DNA from: Pseudochrobactrum sp. sp1633
GTDB lineage: Bacteria; Pseudomonadota; Alphaproteobacteria; Rhizobiales; Rhizobiaceae
Length of the DNA stretch: 50,670 nt
Reading direction: 5' to 3'
Assembly: GCF_030376605.1 (NCBI RefSeq)
Contig: NZ_JARRAE010000020.1
Span: 1-50,670, forward strand
Part shown: piece by piece, positions 43,171 through 50,670 of the stretch
Numbering within the stretch: position 1 is the first letter of the stretch
Layout: the number at the start of each line of letters is the position of its first letter
Notes under the pieces: generated by a model
Databases searched by the model: none
The model's input: the letters and a program-made list of their open reading frames with translations, nothing else
Told to the model about the DNA's origin: nothing
Position numbers and translations under genes: made by a program

Positions 43171-43208
43171 CTTAGGGTGTCATTTCGCCCCATACCGGAA
43201 CCGACCCC
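43171..43208 (-). repeat. Right 38-bp terminal inverted repeat of outer Tn3
   Basis: Matches the left end (24207-24244) at 34 of 38 positions; the differences cluster in the middle. The following TTCAA (43209-43213) is the second copy of the target duplication. Confidence 0.95.
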
Positions 43209-43213
43209 TTCAA

Positions 43214-43389
43214 TGGAAGGCTACCGACAAATCCTTGGCGATCCTCTCCAACAGGTACAAAGGCTTCTTGGTCATGCTAGCTTGACGACCACCTACATTT
43301 ATCTCAATCATATTGCGTCACGAGCGGATACTGTGGATGCCGCGGTTGAGGAGTTACTGGCACTACTTCCTTCGGAGGTCTCGTTATGA
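43214..43389 (+). pseudogene. Tyrosine recombinase A, 3' part after the transposon
   Basis: This segment continues the recombinase broken at 24206: GYRQILGDPLQQVQRLLGHASLTTTYIYLNHI contains the second histidine (LLGH) and the nucleophilic tyrosine of the catalytic domain. Joined to 22928-24206 with a single TTCAA the frame is continuous (GS then MEGYRQ). On its own it has no proper start. Its stop overlaps the next gene's ATG as ATGA. Confidence 0.92.
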
Positions 43390-45173
43390 GGGGGCGGCCT
43401 AGGAAGGGAACCTCAGTCCATTTTGAGCCCACAGATGGTATTGCGCCGGTGCAAGAGCGGGATACGGTATTGGGTCTGCGTTTCAATATCGAAGCGCGCT
43501 ATGGTGGGGTTGTCGAGATTGATCTTGTAGATGTGCATCCGCGGCAGATTGTAATTGCTTTTGCCGGTGCTCTTCGTAGGCAATCTGAGCTTGGCGGGTC
43601 GTTGGGCGCGCGGAGCACGATCAAACAGCACTTGCAGGGTTATTTGAAGTTTTTCGCCTTTCTGCGTGAACACACCATAATCAAGACGCTGCAGGATCTG
43701 CGCGCTGAGGATATTGAAGGATACGAAACTTTTCTCAAGAGCGGAGGAATGAAACCTATTCACCTTCACTCAGTTCTCGCCAAGGTTATTCTTGCCTTAC
43801 GCTCAATTGATGCCGATCATCCAGGTCTTCTCGCTGAAGGGGTGCGTCGACGGCTGAATTACACTAGTGCGCATCCCATTGGTCGATCGCAACCGCGTGA
43901 CGCCTATAGTCCGTTCGTTGCAAGACAACTTCGAGATGCTGCCCGCGCTGATATTACCAACATATTCAAGCGGGTTGGCAAGCCGTTTGATGAAGACGAT
44001 GACTATCCCTATCTTCGTGAAATAACCGACGAGGCCAACGCTCGGATTGCCGCCGCTGGCAGGATCAGCAGTGGGGATCGCATTTTCAAAAAAGTCTATT
44101 TCATGAGGCTGCGCCGCGGTCTTTCTGTGTCAACCTTAGCCGAAGATTTGCATGCGCGTTTTCATCTTCGCGCCTTTGATATTCCTCCCCTCATAAGCTT
44201 TCTTTCCCTAGAAACTGGTTTGGAAATTGAGTGCTGTAAGACATTGACGATAGAGTGTCTTCAAAATCCTCGACCTGGGACAGTCGAGATCGCTTATGTA
44301 AAGCGCCGCGCCCGTGGCTCCGAGTACAAAAATATTAGAGTGCGTGATGGTGGAATCGGAACGCCGGGTGGTCTCATCCGAAAATTGATCGAAGTTACTG
44401 CTTTTACAAGGCAGTTTGTGCCGAGTGATTGCCTTTGGCTTTACTATTATACAGGAAGGAAACAGCTCCGTGCAGGTATCGCTTATCCGCATGAGCTTGT
44501 TGATCGATGGACTAGGAGTCACAACATTCTTAATGACAATGGTGAACCTCTTCGCCTTGTCCTTTCTCGCCTACGTAAGACACATAAAGCGCTCTGGTAT
44601 CTTAAGACCGAAGGTCATATGGCTCGTTTTGCTGTCGGACATACATCTGAAATTGCAGCTCGCCACTATGCTGATATTCCTTCACTACGTCCTCTTCACG
44701 AAGCCACTGTAGCGGAAGCATTTACTGAGGCTGCGGCCGTATTAGGTCCGACCATCTTGGCTTCCGGCAACGAGGATTCTTGGCGCAAAAACCACTCTGC
44801 TTCCGAAGGTGGCACTAATGTTGATACTCTTCTAAATGGTGAGCAGGATGTCTGGTTGGCTGCATGCTCCGGATTTACCAGTAGCCCTTTTGGAAAGCAG
44901 GGAGCTCCTTGTCCGCAGCCCTTCTGGGGGTGTCTCGAATGCAGTAATGCGGTTATTACCGAGCGCAAACTTCCCGCGATAATCGCGTTCTTGCAGTTTA
45001 TTGAAGATCAACGGATAGGACTGGCTGCAATGGATTGGGCAATGAAGTTCGGCCGCGTACATGATCGTATTGTGAAGCAAATTCTCTCTGCTTTCCCCGA
45101 AAGTGTGATTGCTATCGCCCGTCTCGAGGCGGAGAGGAGCGCCCTTTATCTCCCGCCGGAGGCTAGGCAATGA
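43386..45173 (+). CDS. Tyrosine recombinase B of the trio, with altered catalytic residues
   Basis: This 595-residue protein has a core-binding domain (about 70-150: SLGARSTIKQHLQGYLKFFAFLREH, DIEGYETFLK) and a C-terminal recombinase fold. Where the first catalytic arginine is expected it reads SLETGLEIECCKTL, with Glu instead of Arg; the H-x-L-R box reads SRLRKTH, with Ser instead of His. The later histidine and tyrosine persist in AVGHTSEIAARHYADI. Its size is close to TnpB of Tn554. It overlaps both neighbours as ATGA. A cysteine-containing tail (CPQPFWGCLECSNAV) may bind metal. Confidence 0.85.
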   Translation: MRGRPRKGTSVHFEPTDGIAPVQERDTVLGLRFNIEARYGGVVEIDLVDVHPRQIVIAFAGALRRQSELGGSLGARSTIKQHLQGYLKFFAFLREHTIIKTLQDLRAEDIEGYETFLKSGGMKPIHLHSVLAKVILALRSIDADHPGLLAEGVRRRLNYTSAHPIGRSQPRDAYSPFVARQLRDAARADITNIFKRVGKPFDEDDDYPYLREITDEANARIAAAGRISSGDRIFKKVYFMRLRRGLSVSTLAEDLHARFHLRAFDIPPLISFLSLETGLEIECCKTLTIECLQNPRPGTVEIAYVKRRARGSEYKNIRVRDGGIGTPGGLIRKLIEVTAFTRQFVPSDCLWLYYYTGRKQLRAGIAYPHELVDRWTRSHNILNDNGEPLRLVLSRLRKTHKALWYLKTEGHMARFAVGHTSEIAARHYADIPSLRPLHEATVAEAFTEAAAVLGPTILASGNEDSWRKNHSASEGGTNVDTLLNGEQDVWLAACSGFTSSPFGKQGAPCPQPFWGCLECSNAVITERKLPAIIAFLQFIEDQRIGLAAMDWAMKFGRVHDRIVKQILSAFPESVIAIARLEAERSALYLPPEARQ

Positions 45174-47341
45174 CGAGACAGAGGTCAGTAGTTCGTACTT
45201 TTTTGCAACTTGATCTTCGCCCAGTTCTCTTAACGGCGCCATTAAAGTCTGGTTTTGAACGAAGTGCACTGTCGCGCTACAGTGATCCGAGTTGGGATCT
45301 TGGGCCGGCTGTGTTTCGTGAAAACGCTCGGCGCTGTCATGTTACTGTGCACTTTGGCTCGGTAGATGATGCGAGTGTCCGTGAGGCGGTTCGTGAATTT
45401 CTTTATGCTCGACTCAACATTAATATACCAGGGTACCGCAAAATGCTCCCTCCGGCCAGTGTCCGGCAGGTATTCAATCGCGCACGACGTTTTTTTGAGT
45501 TCGTGCATAGGGAACTGGGTGTTGTTGATCTTCAACGTATTGGCCAGTCCCATCTGGATCGCTATGCTCATTTCCTCATGGCTGATCGTAATCGCCGCCC
45601 TATTATTATAGCGCAATTGCTGGAGATCCCTGCTGATCTCTATATCTATAGGGATCATCTTTCCTCTGGAGGTTTGTCATTTCAGCCTTGGGCAGGAACT
45701 TCGCCAACGCGAGTTGCGGGGGGATGTCATGTCAGAGAGAACCGAACACCGCGAATACCCGAGGAGATCATATCGCCACTTCTGGCTTGGTCGATCCAAT
45801 ATTTGAACCAATTCGCTTCCGATATATTCGCTGCTCGTGATGAAATGGACTGTCTGGAAGCTAAATGTGCAGCGATTGTAAAAGCGGATCGATTTTTGGA
45901 TCACAAGCAACGTCGAGAACGACAGTGCAAACGGCTCAAGAATTATTTTGAACGTCTACGTAACGATGGGCGTGGGGTCCCAATTTGGGTAAACACACAC
46001 AATGGTACGTTTCTACAACATCCCCAAACTGGCAATATCTCTCCACCGATTAATTCACATTTACTAAATTTGCATATCGGGATTGATGTTAAAGCTGAGC
46101 CCAAAATGCATATCCAATTGTCAGGCGATATGTCCCGTCAGATCAAGGCTGCTGTGAGCGAGCTTGGTGTGGAGGCTGGTGGAATGAATACACCAATTTC
46201 TTATTTAGCGGAGTCTGGCAAACCTTGGCGATCTCGCTTTGATATTAAAGCTCTCGCCCAGGAAGAGAGGATGTTGCAGTCGGCTGCCTATATAGTCTGT
46301 GCCTATTTGACCGGCATGCGGGACTGCGAGGTTCAAGCGATGCAGCGCGGGTGTCTTTCACTGACGCGTAGCGAAGACGGTATAATCATGCGCCATCGTG
46401 TGCGTTCAGTCGCTTATAAGGGGAAATCTAGTCAGGGTGAACCCGCTGATTGGATTACTATTGAGCCTGTTGCCAGAGCTATACAAGTTCTGGAGCGTTT
46501 GTCGTTTAGAGCTGCATCTGCTCGCGGATTGACAACGCTCTGGCCTGTACTCGCGGCTAAATCGGTTAGTAAGGATCACCTTTCGGCTGAAATCGTTCCT
46601 CAGCTCAATCATTACCGTGACCATCTTAATGATTTATTCGGCACGCCTGACCAGCCCGTAATTCCGAATGACGCAGAGGGAAAACCATGGCGGATTACAA
46701 CGCGGCAGTTCAGACGAACGATCGCATGGCACATTGCCAACCGCCCGTTCGGAACTATTGCGGGCATGATACAATATAAGCATGCGTCCGTCGCTGTCTT
46801 TGAAGGATATGCTGGCTCCAGTCGATCTGATTTCAAGGCGGAAGTCGAGAGTCAGCACAGTCTCGGTCAGATTGATGATTTGTTGATCTATTTCGATCAA
46901 CGAAAAGCGGGAGAGTCGTTGTCAGGGCCTGCGGCTACACGTATAGCGAAAACACTTGATCATATATCAGGCGATCTTGATGCGTTGCCAGCTATGATTG
47001 CTGACAGGTCTCGATTGCGAACTATGCTTGCAAGTCTCGCACGGACATTACATGTTGGCGTTTTAGCTGATTGTTTCTTTGATCCCGGAACAGCTCTATG
47101 TTTGAAGCAAGTGAGCTCTACGAATGATAAGATACCTTTGCCGTCACTTTGCCAACCTACACATTGTCCTAATGCATGTATAACGGCAAGGCATAGGCCG
47201 GCTTGGTTGCGTTCTGCCAATGAGATTAGTGAGTTGTTGAAGGAAAGGCGTTTGCCTCTACTACAGCGCAAAGTTCTTCAGCAAGAGCTTGAAAGAATTA
47301 AAAAAACACTGAATATTATAGATGCTAACAACACGACATAG
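45170..47341 (+). CDS. Tyrosine recombinase C of the trio
   Basis: This 723-residue protein has an N-terminal core-binding part (about 75-150: RKMLPPASVRQVFNRARRFFEFVHRE), a charged middle and a C-terminal catalytic domain with Arg in AYLTGMRDCEVQAM. The box reads RQFRRTIAWH, so the first His of H-x-x-R is Arg, and the end reads YKHASVAVFEGYAG with His and Tyr kept. A cysteine-rich tail (CFFDPGTALCL, CQPTHCPNACIT) may bind zinc. The start overlaps recombinase B as ATGA. It is the last gene of the module, followed by AT-rich cargo. Confidence 0.82.
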   Translation: MTRQRSVVRTFLQLDLRPVLLTAPLKSGFERSALSRYSDPSWDLGPAVFRENARRCHVTVHFGSVDDASVREAVREFLYARLNINIPGYRKMLPPASVRQVFNRARRFFEFVHRELGVVDLQRIGQSHLDRYAHFLMADRNRRPIIIAQLLEIPADLYIYRDHLSSGGLSFQPWAGTSPTRVAGGCHVRENRTPRIPEEIISPLLAWSIQYLNQFASDIFAARDEMDCLEAKCAAIVKADRFLDHKQRRERQCKRLKNYFERLRNDGRGVPIWVNTHNGTFLQHPQTGNISPPINSHLLNLHIGIDVKAEPKMHIQLSGDMSRQIKAAVSELGVEAGGMNTPISYLAESGKPWRSRFDIKALAQEERMLQSAAYIVCAYLTGMRDCEVQAMQRGCLSLTRSEDGIIMRHRVRSVAYKGKSSQGEPADWITIEPVARAIQVLERLSFRAASARGLTTLWPVLAAKSVSKDHLSAEIVPQLNHYRDHLNDLFGTPDQPVIPNDAEGKPWRITTRQFRRTIAWHIANRPFGTIAGMIQYKHASVAVFEGYAGSSRSDFKAEVESQHSLGQIDDLLIYFDQRKAGESLSGPAATRIAKTLDHISGDLDALPAMIADRSRLRTMLASLARTLHVGVLADCFFDPGTALCLKQVSSTNDKIPLPSLCQPTHCPNACITARHRPAWLRSANEISELLKERRLPLLQRKVLQQELERIKKTLNIIDANNTT

Positions 47342-47708: not shown

Positions 47709-47746
47709 AAAAAATACTATAATGGATTATTGAATTTAGTATTTTT
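47709..47746. terminator. Bidirectional terminator between convergent genes
   Basis: AAAAAATACT (47709-47718) and AGTATTTTT (47738-47746) form an inverted repeat whose ends are A and T runs, so it can act in both directions. It separates the 62-residue gene from the KTSC-HerA-SIR2 operon. Confidence 0.65.
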
Positions 47747-47748
47747 GT

Positions 47749-47961
47749 TTATCCAACTCTACTGAAATTATACGTACTTCTTACTCTTTGTGCAAAATAA
47801 CGCCCCACTGATGATGCGCTTATTAATTCCTGGTAAACATTCTCTGGCACGTTGTAATACTCATATATCCCCCCAGATAAGAATTCTATTTCAAGAGTCT
47901 GTGATATTTCATCATACCCTACGGAAGCGATATTCGAAGAACTAACGGATTGACGATCCAT
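47749..47961 (-). CDS. KTSC-domain protein
   Basis: This 70-residue protein consists entirely of a KTSC domain: VSSSNIASVGYDEISQTLEIEFLSGGIYEYYNVPENVYQELISASSVGRYFAQRVRSTY. The domain resembles part of lysyl-tRNA synthetase and has no established function. Its start is eight bases after the stop of the HerA gene on the same strand, so it is very likely the third gene of the SIR2-HerA operon. The low GC content matches those genes. Confidence 0.88.
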   Translation of the reverse strand: MDRQSVSSSNIASVGYDEISQTLEIEFLSGGIYEYYNVPENVYQELISASSVGRYFAQRVRSTYNFSRVG

Positions 47962-47969
47962 GATTTTCC

Positions 47970-49742
47970 CTACTGTACACTATCTTGGTTTCTCCAAGCC
48001 TGAACAAGTTTTGAGTAATCTTCATCACCTCGTTCAGTATTCCATTTTTCACCAATTTGGGGATCCCCGCTGTTGGGGTATTTATCAGCTGGTAAGACAT
48101 TGAATCTGCAACGCGTGGGAAGCTGTGCTGCCTCACCTACTATTATGGCTTCACCAGTTCTAAGAACAGGTAATGAATCAACAATTCCAGCTAAGCCATC
48201 TGACATTGCTGCTTTAACTATGCCACGATCAGTTGAATTATTAATTCTTAAGGATATAATAGTTCCACACTGAGATAAGATTGTTTCATCTATCTCAGAG
48301 GGACGCTGGCTAACTATCATTGCACCGACTCCGAACTTTCGTCCCTCTTTAGCAATCCGTTGTACCATTTCTTTCGAATGTCCATTTTCGGCCTTTCCTA
48401 GATAGCGGTGTGCTTCTTCAAGAACAATTAAAAGTGGACGTTCGCGCATTCCTTCCGCAACATTTCTCCCCCAGAGTGCTGCCTCAAAAATAATATCAAG
48501 TAAGGCTCCTAGAAGTAATGATAATCGAGCCGATGGCATCCCAGATAAATCAAAAATTGTTATAGGTTTATCATGTCCAAGCCAATCCTCAAGAAGTTGA
48601 TCTAAGTCTTTATTAATCTTTCCATCGGGATTTGGGTTCCAATCACCTGGTTCCAAAAGAAATGAATATTGAGAATCGAGTAATCTTGATTTCATTAAAT
48701 CAAGTTGTCTTTTCATAGACCCAGTGCCACCTTTTTTCGGCAATGCTGAACCAATCCCAGGAGGGGTGAACTTAGGAGCAACTAATTCTTCAAATGATCC
48801 TTGACCATTTTCTGTATAGGCCGGTGTAGTCATGGCATTGTCACTATAGGTTATGCCGTCTTCATGGCAGAGATCATACCATATTTTTTTCAATCGATAA
48901 GGAAGAGGAGTATTGTTGGTTACTTTTTCGGGCTCAATATTTTGTATGTTGTTTTCTATTATACTTAATTTTTTTTCTTCAACAGTTTTGTCTAAAAAGA
49001 GAGTTCTTTGAGTTTCGTTGGGATTGTTTGAAAGAAAATCGATCAATTTATCGGGTGAAATGCTCCAAAAGGGTATGTAAAGTTGGTTTTCTCCCGATGG
49101 CAAAATTGAGAATGTTTTTGCTACATCGCTGAGAGCAGGGCCATATTCGCCATGTATATCTATTAGAAGAACTCTCGCTGATGGTAATGGTGTCTCATCA
49201 GATTTTATAACCATTGATCGCAGAAGACTTGCTGTACTGGTGGACTTGCCGGATCCGGTAGATCCTAGTATGGCAGAGTGTCGTGCAATAAGTTTATCCA
49301 AGTCTAAACTGATTTCAATTCCTTCTGAACTAGATAAACGACCAACTTGAAAATGACTATTTAAGCGCTTGCTGAATATTGTTTCCAAATCACTATCGAC
49401 AACAAAATGAACTTGATCACCAATGCTTGGATATTCACTGATACCTCTGTCAAAGTGACCACCAATGGCTTCCCCCACGAGTTCGACTTTGATCCACTTT
49501 CTTTCGGAGGCCATTTCGGAATCTGCATTAATCTTTGATGTTTCACTGGATTCGGAAATAACACCGTAAAGATGATTATATCCCAAAGGAATTTTTACAA
49601 AACTTCCAACCTGTCCAATTCTATAATTGCGCCCTTCTAATACTACGATTCCTGACTCAACAGACGCAGCAAGATCAACCGTTACTGATGCACTTGAAAC
49701 GGAGCTTACAACGCCTAAAAATGTTGGTTGCAGAGTTGTCAT
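47970..49742 (-). CDS. HerA-type ATPase/translocase of a SIR2-HerA defence pair
   Basis: This 590-residue protein starts with a HAS-barrel-like beta domain (about 1-140, FLGVVSSVSSASVTVDL and VGSFVKIPLGYNHLYGVI) followed by a DUF87/FtsK-HerA ATPase domain. The Walker A motif is GSTGSGKS (160-167), Walker B LLIVLEEAHRYL (437-448), then VSQRPSEIDETILSQCGTIISLRINN with the sensor and arginine-finger region. HerA ATPases form hexamers that move along DNA. With a SIR2-like partner the pair forms the known SIR2-HerA anti-phage NADase system. It overlaps the SIR2 gene as ATGA. Confidence 0.92.
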   Translation of the reverse strand: MTTLQPTFLGVVSSVSSASVTVDLAASVESGIVVLEGRNYRIGQVGSFVKIPLGYNHLYGVISESSETSKINADSEMASERKWIKVELVGEAIGGHFDRGISEYPSIGDQVHFVVDSDLETIFSKRLNSHFQVGRLSSSEGIEISLDLDKLIARHSAILGSTGSGKSTSTASLLRSMVIKSDETPLPSARVLLIDIHGEYGPALSDVAKTFSILPSGENQLYIPFWSISPDKLIDFLSNNPNETQRTLFLDKTVEEKKLSIIENNIQNIEPEKVTNNTPLPYRLKKIWYDLCHEDGITYSDNAMTTPAYTENGQGSFEELVAPKFTPPGIGSALPKKGGTGSMKRQLDLMKSRLLDSQYSFLLEPGDWNPNPDGKINKDLDQLLEDWLGHDKPITIFDLSGMPSARLSLLLGALLDIIFEAALWGRNVAEGMRERPLLIVLEEAHRYLGKAENGHSKEMVQRIAKEGRKFGVGAMIVSQRPSEIDETILSQCGTIISLRINNSTDRGIVKAAMSDGLAGIVDSLPVLRTGEAIIVGEAAQLPTRCRFNVLPADKYPNSGDPQIGEKWNTERGDEDYSKLVQAWRNQDSVQ

Positions 49743-50670
49743 GCTTGCACCTCATGTGCGTCTGACGCCCCTGTGTTCTGTTCTTCTTCTGGAGCGTTTG
49801 GCTGCACGATGTCTTGAGATATATTACTACCCGCTGTTGCTAAAAAACGAGCGAGACGGACAAAATCTCCAAGTAAAAATTTATTTTCTTGGTAATATTC
49901 AGATCGAATTTCTGGCCAGTTTTTTGTTGGAGGAGTGCCAAGTTTCCATTTCGCTTCTACGCCGTTTATTACTGCACCATCTGTACAAAAAACACTCACG
50001 CCTGAGCATCTCAAGGCTAATTCTTTAGCCGCTTTTTCGTCCGCTAGGCTATTGAATTGGAATGCTAGTAATGCTGCTGTAGGGTTTGCCATTAAACTCT
50101 CAAGTAGTCGAGATGAGATGTGCGCGTCGGCAAAAGAAAACCCTGTACATAAAATCAATGTGTCTGGTTCCAGGATGAAATTTTTTAAGCGCTCGAACAA
50201 AGATGAAAATGGAGCTGCTTGTGTCTGATCATACTTGATGTGTGATGGATAGACCATATTAGCATTGTCTGAATTTGGTACGCGCACGACCTCGCCATTT
50301 TCTGTTGATTCCCAGCCAATGGATCCATGAAGCTTCCATAGTCTTACCCAACGGGGTGGAAGGTCATTCTTAGAAATACTCGAAGGATCAAAAAATGCGC
50401 ATTTTGATCCACTGAAACCATCAAAATAAGGTGTTCGTGCTCTCTCTAATGCATTTTCAATTAAAAGGTCATAATTAGTTGTAAAAATTTCAACTGCGTA
50501 TTTTCGATTAATACCGGTAATCCATGATACCAGTTCAGAATAAGGGTTTGGTTCACTAGGTAAATCTTGTGCAACTACATCTCTTATTGAAGAGCATATT
50601 TTCTGAGATAGCTCATTAAAATCTTTGGCTGTAAAGTCGAAAAGAGTACCTACATCAATTACTTCAGCAA
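49739..50670 (-). CDS. SIR2-like protein, 5' end beyond the window
   Basis: The frame is open from the right edge for about 310 codons. It contains VEIFTTNYDLLIENALE (the TTNYD motif), VRLWKLHGSIGWES, and FILEPDTLILCTGFSFADAHI, which are the conserved blocks of SIR2-like domains found in defence proteins. Such domains degrade NAD+ on phage infection. The true start lies upstream of the window's end; the GTG at 50287 is internal. The stop overlaps the HerA start as ATGA. Low GC content sets the operon apart from the rest of the window. Confidence 0.88.
   Translation of the reverse strand, partial: AEVIDVGTLFDFTAKDFNELSQKICSSIRDVVAQDLPSEPNPYSELVSWITGINRKYAVEIFTTNYDLLIENALERARTPYFDGFSGSKCAFFDPSSISKNDLPPRWVRLWKLHGSIGWESTENGEVVRVPNSDNANMVYPSHIKYDQTQAAPFSSLFERLKNFILEPDTLILCTGFSFADAHISSRLLESLMANPTAALLAFQFNSLADEKAAKELALRCSGVSVFCTDGAVINGVEAKWKLGTPPTKNWPEIRSEYYQENKFLLGDFVRLARFLATAGSNISQDIVQPNAPEEEQNTGASDAHEVQA

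What the first reader, a model, noticed from the sequence alone, without database searches (positions are those of the whole stretch)
47749..50670. SIR2-HerA defence operon with a KTSC-domain gene as possible third component
Three tightly spaced genes (SIR2-like, HerA-type ATPase overlapping by ATGA, KTSC protein 8 bp downstream) share strand, low GC content and a common terminator at 47709-47746. SIR2-HerA is a known anti-phage NADase pair, but I know of no description of a KTSC protein as part of it. KTSC resembles a piece of lysyl-tRNA synthetase, so it could sense, inhibit or feed the NADase complex.
Basis: partly seen in the sequence, partly recalled or inferred. Interest (0 to 1): 0.8.

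Follow-up and report, generated by a model that had tools for sequence, protein, structure and literature searches.

The report
Third gene in a phage-defence NADase operon
Next to a known pair of bacterial anti-phage genes sits a tiny third gene that accompanies one branch of this system almost without exception and in some relatives is fused to the motor protein, so it is best read as a detachable piece of the machine rather than a chance neighbour.

Summary
The three genes are real. The KTSC gene (47749-47961, -) follows HerA by 8 nt; SIR2 is cut by the contig end, its first 93 residues lying at the edge of contig C16. KTSC is a component of one HerA clade: of the best 80 HerA loci of a genome scan, 47 carry KTSC directly after HerA (45 separate, 2 fused), and KTSC+ HerAs form one side of one branch. 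HerA-first surveys agree: 8 of 8 close HerAs in the window's own phylum and 11 of 12 matches in L058's phylum (Bacteroidota); the exception has a shortened HerA. KTSC is also the C-terminal domain (629-696) of the HerA in the solved SIR2/HerA complex 8wld. KTSC divergence tracks HerA (partial r 0.47), not SIR2 (0.02). Best reading: KTSC is the trans-encoded C-terminal module of HerA, probably a DNA-binding clutch on the ring. Prior art: one sentence in PMC9503650 couples HerA, KTSC and an endoDNase 'in lieu of' sirtuin. Seen here: in this branch the three-gene form is the rule, and an extra gene with a PD-(D/E)xK-like motif follows KTSC in 12 loci, 11 of which visibly keep the sirtuin.

The parts
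47749..47961 (-). KTSC-domain protein, 70 aa; trans-encoded equivalent of the C-terminal domain of 8wiv-type HerA
   Evidence: PF13619 E 2.9e-25; 8wiv_A 629-696 E 7.2e-17; AlphaFold2 pLDDT 95; Foldseek TM 0.97 to 7x8c and 0.73-0.90 to KTSC domains within ten HerA chains of 8wld, 8wof, 8wiv and 8wj3
47970..49742 (-). HerA-type hexameric ATPase/translocase, 590 aa
   Evidence: DUF87 7.8e-35; PDLC04105 505 bits; 8wiv_A E 7.7e-145; Walker A Lys166 and acidic Glu443 invariant in 57 of 57 aligned rows
49739..50670 (-). SIR2-family NADase, C-terminal 309 codons; the first ~93 residues are on contig C16 of the same genome
   Evidence: SIR2_2 1.3e-16; PDLC04094 424 bits; 8w9l_A 1.2e-63; Asn65 in 46 of 47 and His114 in 47 of 47 rows with a letter there, of 50 rows; N-terminus at C16:6-284
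47710..47746 (.). A+T-rich 10-nt inverted repeat between the operon and a convergent 62-aa ORF; possible but unproven terminator
   Evidence: fold z-scores -1.16 and -0.86; not called by the terminator scan

Best explanation
The window carries a SIR2-HerA-KTSC anti-phage operon, a three-gene subtype of SIR2-HerA (Nezha). HerA is a ring-forming ATPase that pulls DNA; SIR2 is an NAD+-destroying effector that HerA switches on. KTSC is the C-terminal module of HerA, made here as a separate, probably translationally coupled subunit. It most likely sits on the HerA hexamer as in the fused, solved relative, where it helps hold or release a resting ring state and contacts (single-stranded) DNA. On engagement of phage DNA the ring state changes, SIR2 is activated, NAD+ falls and the phage burst fails. 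Shown: operon anatomy, clade-wide linkage, fusions, an ordered KTSC domain in solved HerA chains, KTSC-HerA co-divergence. Inferred: binding in trans, DNA contact, clutch role, defence by this very operon.
For: Linkage: 47 of 80 scanned loci are KTSC+ (45 separate, 2 fused); HerA-KTSC gap median 9 nt, -20 to 42, n = 55 unfused loci of several searches, start codons chosen by script; KTSC+ is one side of one HerA branch, 51 of 84 rows, SH-aLRT 99. HerA-first: 8 of 8 close HerAs among 398 genomes of the window's phylum and 11 of 12 matches among 296 genomes of L058's phylum. KTSC-first: 8 of 69 KTSC matches abut HerA, the same 8. Viral contigs: 5 of 6 HerA loci have KTSC (one fused); in the sixth, L186, HerA runs to the contig end. 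Fusion: HerA-KTSC in one frame in L037, L038 and L184, and PDB 8wiv_A 629-696. Order in 3D: KTSC is found inside HerA chains of 8wiv, 8wj3, 8wld and 8wof. Co-divergence over 48 systems: KTSC-HerA r 0.66, partial 0.47; KTSC-SIR2 partial 0.02. Signature: Asn10 in 47 of 55 system KTSCs and 5 of 57 others. One KTSC in the whole genome.
Against: No HerA-KTSC complex was modelled: the fused AlphaFold2 monomer has a poorly predicted linker (561-576 and 601-614 under pLDDT 50) and superposes on 8wld chains with rmsd about 20 A over ~690 columns, so docking is not reproduced. Some HerA chains of the same solved entries lack the domain, so its position is not uniform. SIR2-HerA can do without KTSC elsewhere: the E. 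coli complex 8sub/8j4u gives no KTSC match, and 5 of 33 KTSC-less scanned loci keep SIR2. Two-gene V. cholerae Nezha sufficed when the rest of its island was deleted (PMC11559045 passages), but whether its HerA bears a KTSC was not examined. ssDNA binding is known to me from a paper title only. That a C-terminal extension stabilises a split-spiral HerA is recalled from an abstract (Liao 2024) not held here. System KTSCs are not one clean clade (8 changes in a poorly resolved 69-column tree).
Confidence: 0.62

Rival explanations
1. KTSC is a free ssDNA/RNA-binding sensor that delivers phage nucleic acid or recruits the complex, without being a stable HerA subunit.
For: KTSC has a free-standing relative of near-identical fold (7x8c, TM 0.97) and a KTSC protein of Euryarchaea is titled a single-stranded DNA-binding protein (title in a reference list). 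Most KTSC matches surveyed (61 of 69) are not next to HerA, so the fold works alone.
Against: Fusions with HerA, the ordered domain inside HerA chains and co-divergence with HerA favour a bound subunit. Sensor and subunit are not exclusive.
Confidence: 0.2
2. KTSC is an antitoxin-like brake on the SIR2 NADase.
For: Small downstream gene, nearly constant presence.
Against: The fusions found are to HerA, none to SIR2; KTSC-SIR2 partial correlation given HerA is 0.02. In L221 SIR2 persists without KTSC, though beside a shortened HerA, so that case is ambiguous.
Confidence: 0.1
3. KTSC acts on translation or tRNA, as its name (lysyl-tRNA synthetase C-terminus) suggests.
For: Annotation history of the domain; jumbo-phage KTSC proposed for ribosome rescue or phage translation (PMC7824862 passage).
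Against: Nearest solved relatives are free KTSC proteins and HerA-borne KTSC; no tRNA gene in the window; linkage is to HerA.
Confidence: 0.04
4. KTSC is a passenger gene carried on the same mobile element.
For: The locus lies beside recombinase-like and mobilisation genes.
Against: Clade-wide linkage in many hosts, plasmids and an archaeon, repeated fusion to HerA.
Confidence: 0.02

Closest known systems
SIR2/HerA complex of PDB 8wld/8woc/8wod/8wof and HerA 8wiv (recalled: Paenibacillus sp. 453MF, Liao et al. 2024 NAR; paper not held)
   Same: Nearest solved HerA (E 7.7e-145) and SIR2 (1.2e-63); the same KTSC domain, at HerA 629-696
   Different: There KTSC is fused to HerA; here and in 45 of 47 scanned relatives it is a separate third gene
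E. coli-type SIR2-HerA / Nezha (8j4u, 8sub; V. cholerae Nezha, PMC11559045)
   Same: SIR2 NADase plus HerA motor
   Different: E. coli type: distant HerA (114 bits), no KTSC match in the PDB search; window proteins fall far below the NCBIfam equivalog cut-offs. V. cholerae proteins were not compared
HerA + DNA-binding KTSC + endoDNase variants (Iyer et al. 2022, PMC9503650, one sentence, unpublished observations; passages seen)
   Same: KTSC coupled to a HerA-like ATPase
   Different: [quoted passage not shown] here the sirtuin is kept, and 11 of 12 loci with the extra PD-(D/E)xK-like gene visibly have both (the twelfth, L075, starts at a contig end)
KTSC-family protein 7x8c (Methanolobus vulcani)
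   Same: Same fold (TM 0.97) and length
   Different: Its genomic context was not examined here

Membership tests
SIR2-HerA (Nezha) anti-phage system | SIR2-family NADase gene with catalytic Asn and His | tested here: met
   SIR2_2 and PDLC04094 hits; Asn65 in 46 of 47 and His114 in 47 of 47 rows with a letter; GAG motif on contig C16. Which residues are catalytic is recalled, not from a call
SIR2-HerA (Nezha) anti-phage system | Adjacent HerA ATPase with Walker motifs | tested here: met
   ATGA overlap with SIR2; PDLC04105 505 bits; Walker A Lys and the EAH motif invariant in 57 of 57 rows
SIR2-HerA (Nezha) anti-phage system | NCBIfam equivalogs SIR2_antiphage and HerA_antiphage | tested here: not met
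   74.6 of 500 bits (SIR2 truncated to 309 aa, so somewhat underscored) and 248.7 of 850 bits: a different branch from those equivalogs
SIR2-HerA (Nezha) anti-phage system | Phage protection, NAD+ loss, SIR2-HerA supercomplex | not testable with these tools
   Known only for relatives (PDB titles)
8wld-type SIR2-HerA branch | KTSC domain attached to or encoded directly after HerA | tested here: met
   8 nt after HerA here; all KTSC+ loci fall on one HerA branch that also holds the window. The 8wiv sequence itself was not placed on the HerA tree; it is the nearest solved HerA
KTSC family (PF13619) | Domain score over curated cut-off, KTSC fold | tested here: met
   88.2 bits against 25, positions 1-58 of 58; TM 0.97 to 7x8c
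Lysyl-tRNA synthetase | Aminoacyl-tRNA synthetase catalytic domain | tested here: not met
   70-aa protein with KTSC as the only Pfam match at E 0.1 or better

The most novel reading that the evidence does not exclude
KTSC is a detachable DNA-sensing clutch of HerA and also a docking point for further effectors. Six KTSC copies ring the HerA mouth, hold the motor in a resting state until they meet ssDNA, and in a recurrent four-gene form hand DNA to an undescribed PD-(D/E)xK-like nuclease encoded right after KTSC, so one motor drives both NAD+ depletion and DNA cutting.
Probability: 0.25. Interest if true: 0.75.

Novelty: new variant of a known kind. Interest (0 to 1): 0.56.

Why it matters
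SIR2-HerA is described as a two-component system (passages), and PADLOC-DB 2.0.0 gives no match for this KTSC. If KTSC is an obligate HerA subunit in this branch, clones that leave out the ~210-bp third gene may be inactive or misregulated, and the solved fused structure can be mined at once for what the domain does. It also offers a handle on the open question of what turns the complex on: a domain from a family reported to bind ssDNA, attached to the DNA motor. The extra nuclease-like gene widens the system further.

Tried and rejected
Independent promoter for KTSC: 11 promoter-like sites against 9.2 (sd 3.4) in shuffles of the region, no support. Common terminator: inverted repeat present but no better than shuffles. 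KTSC as one of several housekeeping copies: only one KTSC in the genome, this one. KTSC system genes as one clade: not shown, 8 changes against 37.8 in shuffles in a tree with few columns. Docking from the fused model: not informative. E. coli population test of KTSC loss: only 1 of 5426 genomes carries a near copy, so no test was possible. Phage-borne copies of this HerA: none in 50,697 phage records at 1e-30. Common origin of the two nuclease-like neighbours (A8 and DUF2130): profile comparison not significant (probability 0.2%), although it aligns GD...ExK to GD...ExK. Neighbours of non-HerA KTSC genes: ten flanking ORFs from seven loci gave no common partner. Papers on the solved complex and on the ssDNA-binding KTSC are not held. 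The claim that a three-gene form is not in print rests on searches (listings, with passages opened in some of the papers) of one open-access library, which lacks most subscription papers and all preprints.
Full report
OBSERVATION. The minus strand of the window's right end carries SIR2 (49739-50670, cut), HerA (47970-49742) and KTSC (47749-47961), with a 4-nt ATGA overlap and an 8-nt gap. Pfam finds all three and PADLOC the first two; PADLOC has no match for KTSC. The contig ends at 50670. A relative's SIR2 used as query finds residues 1-93 at C16:6-284 and 95-376 at C13:49823-50668, and C16 reads a GAG motif in the right frame, so the gene seems interrupted only by the assembly. GC falls to 40% in this part. 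The inverted repeat at 47710-47746 exists, but its role as terminator is not supported.

RECURRENCE. A genome-contig scan with a three-HerA profile kept its best 80 loci of 576. Local profile searches show KTSC directly after HerA in 47 of 80: 45 as separate genes and two fused in frame, L037 and L038. SIR2 is seen in 46 of these 47; the exception, L075, starts at a contig end. None of the other 33 has KTSC next to HerA; five of them have SIR2. On a HerA tree of 84 rows the 51 KTSC+ rows are one side of a single branch (SH-aLRT 99). By record titles and NCBI ranks the hosts of KTSC+ loci include Pseudomonadota, Campylobacterota, Thermodesulfobacteriota, Bacteroidota, Spirochaetota, Nitrospinota, Actinomycetota, Omnitrophota, Eremiobacterota and Patescibacteria; a plasmid of the archaeon Natrinema zhouii carries the set too. 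Several of these are metagenome bins, whose naming can err.

TWO-WAY CONTROLS. KTSC-first: 69 KTSC matches in 51 of 398 genomes of the window's phylum; 8 of 69 abut HerA. For 22 of the 61 others only about 1.5 kb of flank was examined, enough to see an abutting gene. HerA-first in the same phylum draw: nine matches at 1e-60; the eight close ones (1e-140 or better) are exactly those eight places, and the ninth (30% identity) has neither KTSC nor SIR2 within its 1.5-kb flanks. HerA-first in 296 genomes of L058's phylum: 12 matches in 10 genomes, 11 with KTSC; the twelfth (L221) has a HerA matched only to residue 477 of 590 and no KTSC. One of the 11 (L220) has a stop codon inside HerA and one (L223) is a fragment. 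Earlier, in 385 genomes of the class, the two matches with 41-45% identity over nearly the full length had KTSC and none of the other 27 non-self loci fetched did; the match table was longer than the 30 loci fetched. Viral contigs: of six HerA loci five have KTSC and in the sixth HerA runs to the contig end. Plasmids: 33 records with HerA at 1e-60. Nine regions were opened and all nine show KTSC after HerA; in one of them, Agrobacterium pusense, a transposon-like insert splits HerA and KTSC follows its second half. For ten more (H1-H4, H7-H11, H33) the coordinates put KTSC next to HerA. Fourteen were not opened.

FUSION AND STRUCTURE. A third fusion is in viral contig L184. The PDB search gives the nearest solved HerA as 8wiv_A (E 7.7e-145), whose residues 629-696 are a KTSC domain (E 7.2e-17 with the window's KTSC). 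The window's KTSC folds confidently (pLDDT 95) and matches 7x8c, 4rgi and then KTSC domains inside ten HerA chains of 8wof, 8wld, 8wiv and 8wj3 (TM 0.73-0.97). The SIR2 sequence of this complex is in 8wld, 8woc, 8wod and 8wof but not listed for 8wiv or 8wj3, so the domain is seen both with and without SIR2. 8woc and 8wod chains are absent from the KTSC matches and their listed chains hold 354-560 residues, too few to include it; but some chains of the other entries also lack it (8wld_A 481, 8wof_D 547, 8wiv_A 411 residues). The domain's order therefore varies between subunits and perhaps states; this is a hint, not proof. The library keeps one chain per set of identical sequences, so the census is incomplete. 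The fused AlphaFold2 model (pTM 0.77) does not reproduce the relative placement (rmsd about 20 A). I recall, without having been able to read it, that the abstract of Liao et al. 2024 speaks of a split-spiral HerA stabilised by a unique C-terminal extension; if that extension is this domain, the clutch idea follows.

CO-DIVERGENCE. Over 48 of 57 systems (nine dropped because HerA or SIR2 was missing or short) pairwise distances correlate KTSC-HerA 0.66, KTSC-SIR2 0.53 and HerA-SIR2 0.79. Partial correlations are 0.47 for KTSC-HerA given SIR2, 0.02 for KTSC-SIR2 given HerA, and 0.69 for HerA-SIR2 given KTSC. KTSC is short, so its distances are noisy, and fused pairs were not excluded beforehand. 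KTSC thus follows HerA. System KTSCs share features that are rarer elsewhere: Asn10 in 47 of 55 against 5 of 57, Tyr/Phe36 in 41 of 55 against at most 20 of 57, Tyr33 in 55 of 55 against 40 of 57. The system set left out the two divergent members L076 and L078; the 57 others are non-HerA matches of the survey with short ones dropped.

EXTRA GENES. Comparing flanking ORFs of KTSC+ loci gave two recurrent neighbours. The first is a ~345-aa protein encoded directly downstream of KTSC: L004, L033, L051, L055, L057, L066, L070, L075, L122/L198 and L185, plus Paracoccus zhejiangensis (L203) and L215, 12 independent loci. It has invariant D137 and E153-C-K155 in seven aligned members, an insignificant PDDEXK_11 hit (E 0.033, beside other equally weak hits), no PADLOC, NCBIfam or PHROGs match and no solved relative (best E 0.49). 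Most of these loci were fetched for their HerA or KTSC, so the unbiased evidence is this: in 398 phylum genomes two copies at 1e-5, both after KTSC; in 72,556 plasmid records one, after KTSC; in viral contigs one locus, the same operon. It needs six changes on a 54-row HerA tree (shuffled mean 7.6, as low in 16 of 500), so it behaves as an exchangeable add-on. The window's genome lacks it. The second is a DUF2130 protein: upstream of SIR2 in L045, L049, L059, L063, the window's own genome (C16:339-1532, about 54 nt before SIR2) and its close relative L193, but downstream of KTSC in another close relative, G567 (L114/L194). Its GD...ExK residues are invariant in the five rows aligned. That either is a nuclease is inference from motifs. 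PMC9503650 (passages) argues that sirtuin and endoDNase are mutually exclusive in HerA systems; if the first protein is a DNase, that does not hold in this branch, since 11 of its 12 loci visibly keep SIR2.

MECHANISM. Shown for relatives: SIR2-HerA forms a large complex with several enzyme activities (review passages), and in V. cholerae SIR2 active-site mutation or herA deletion abolishes protection. Inferred here: KTSC is the separately made C-terminal module of HerA, bound to the ring and to DNA, and acts as clutch or loading factor. Since other branches lack it, it probably tunes rather than creates the core activity.

CONTEXT. Left of the operon lie two large ORFs, of which the 723-aa one has a weak integrase match (E 8.7e-4) and the 595-aa one none, and a 70-codon recombinase C-terminal fragment. 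One of six same-genus genomes searched has the 723-aa ORF at 77% identity. Beyond the C16 edge lie HTH, RHH, ParA-like, MobC/NikA, relaxase, AbiEi/AbiEii and type IV coupling protein genes. The operon is therefore probably cargo of a mobile element beside another defence pair.

VERDICT. A new variant of a known kind: third-component status strongly supported, mechanism plausible but untested, prior mention in one sentence and in a solved fused relative.

Noticed in passing
L033:8002-9039, L004:109-1143, L215:3522-4556 and nine more loci; not in the window: Uncatalogued ~345-aa family with an invariant D-x15-E-C-K motif, encoded directly downstream of KTSC in all 12 places found; the searches of 398 phylum genomes, 72,556 plasmid records and viral contigs found no copy outside this operon.
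   Followed up: partly
L206:339-1532 (contig C16 of the window's genome): DUF2130 protein with a GD...ExK motif about 54 nt upstream of SIR2 on the same strand; also upstream of SIR2 in L045, L049, L059, L063 and L193, and downstream of KTSC in L114/L194.
   Followed up: partly
window 43177-47341: Two large overlapping ORFs (595 and 723 aa), the second with a weak integrase match, preceded by a 70-codon recombinase C-terminal fragment that may be a truncated gene; a same-genus genome (L209) has a 77% identical copy of the second ORF next to another long ORF.
   Followed up: partly
L206:1864-11998: Mobilisation genes (MobC/NikA, relaxase, coupling protein) and an AbiEi/AbiEii pair next to the defence operon: probably a mobile element with several defence cargoes.
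   Followed up: partly
phage records H35-H74: KTSC matches in 76 of 50,697 phage records although none has this HerA at 1e-30; could be replication proteins or decoys for HerA-KTSC.
   Followed up: no
plasmids H75, H77, H81: In haloarchaeal plasmids KTSC matches lie over features annotated both as KTSC and as ThiF-family adenylyltransferase, perhaps another KTSC-linked system.
   Followed up: no
L190:5663-6755 (Natrinema zhouii plasmid): SIR2-HerA-KTSC of an archaeon followed by two ORFs annotated as ADP-ribosylglycohydrolase.
   Followed up: no
L210:11992-22887 (Agrobacterium pusense plasmid pB): A transposon-like insert with phosphonate genes splits HerA; KTSC still follows the second HerA piece.
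   Followed up: no
L221 (G1019): The only match in the survey of L058's phylum without KTSC also has a shortened HerA frame.
   Followed up: no
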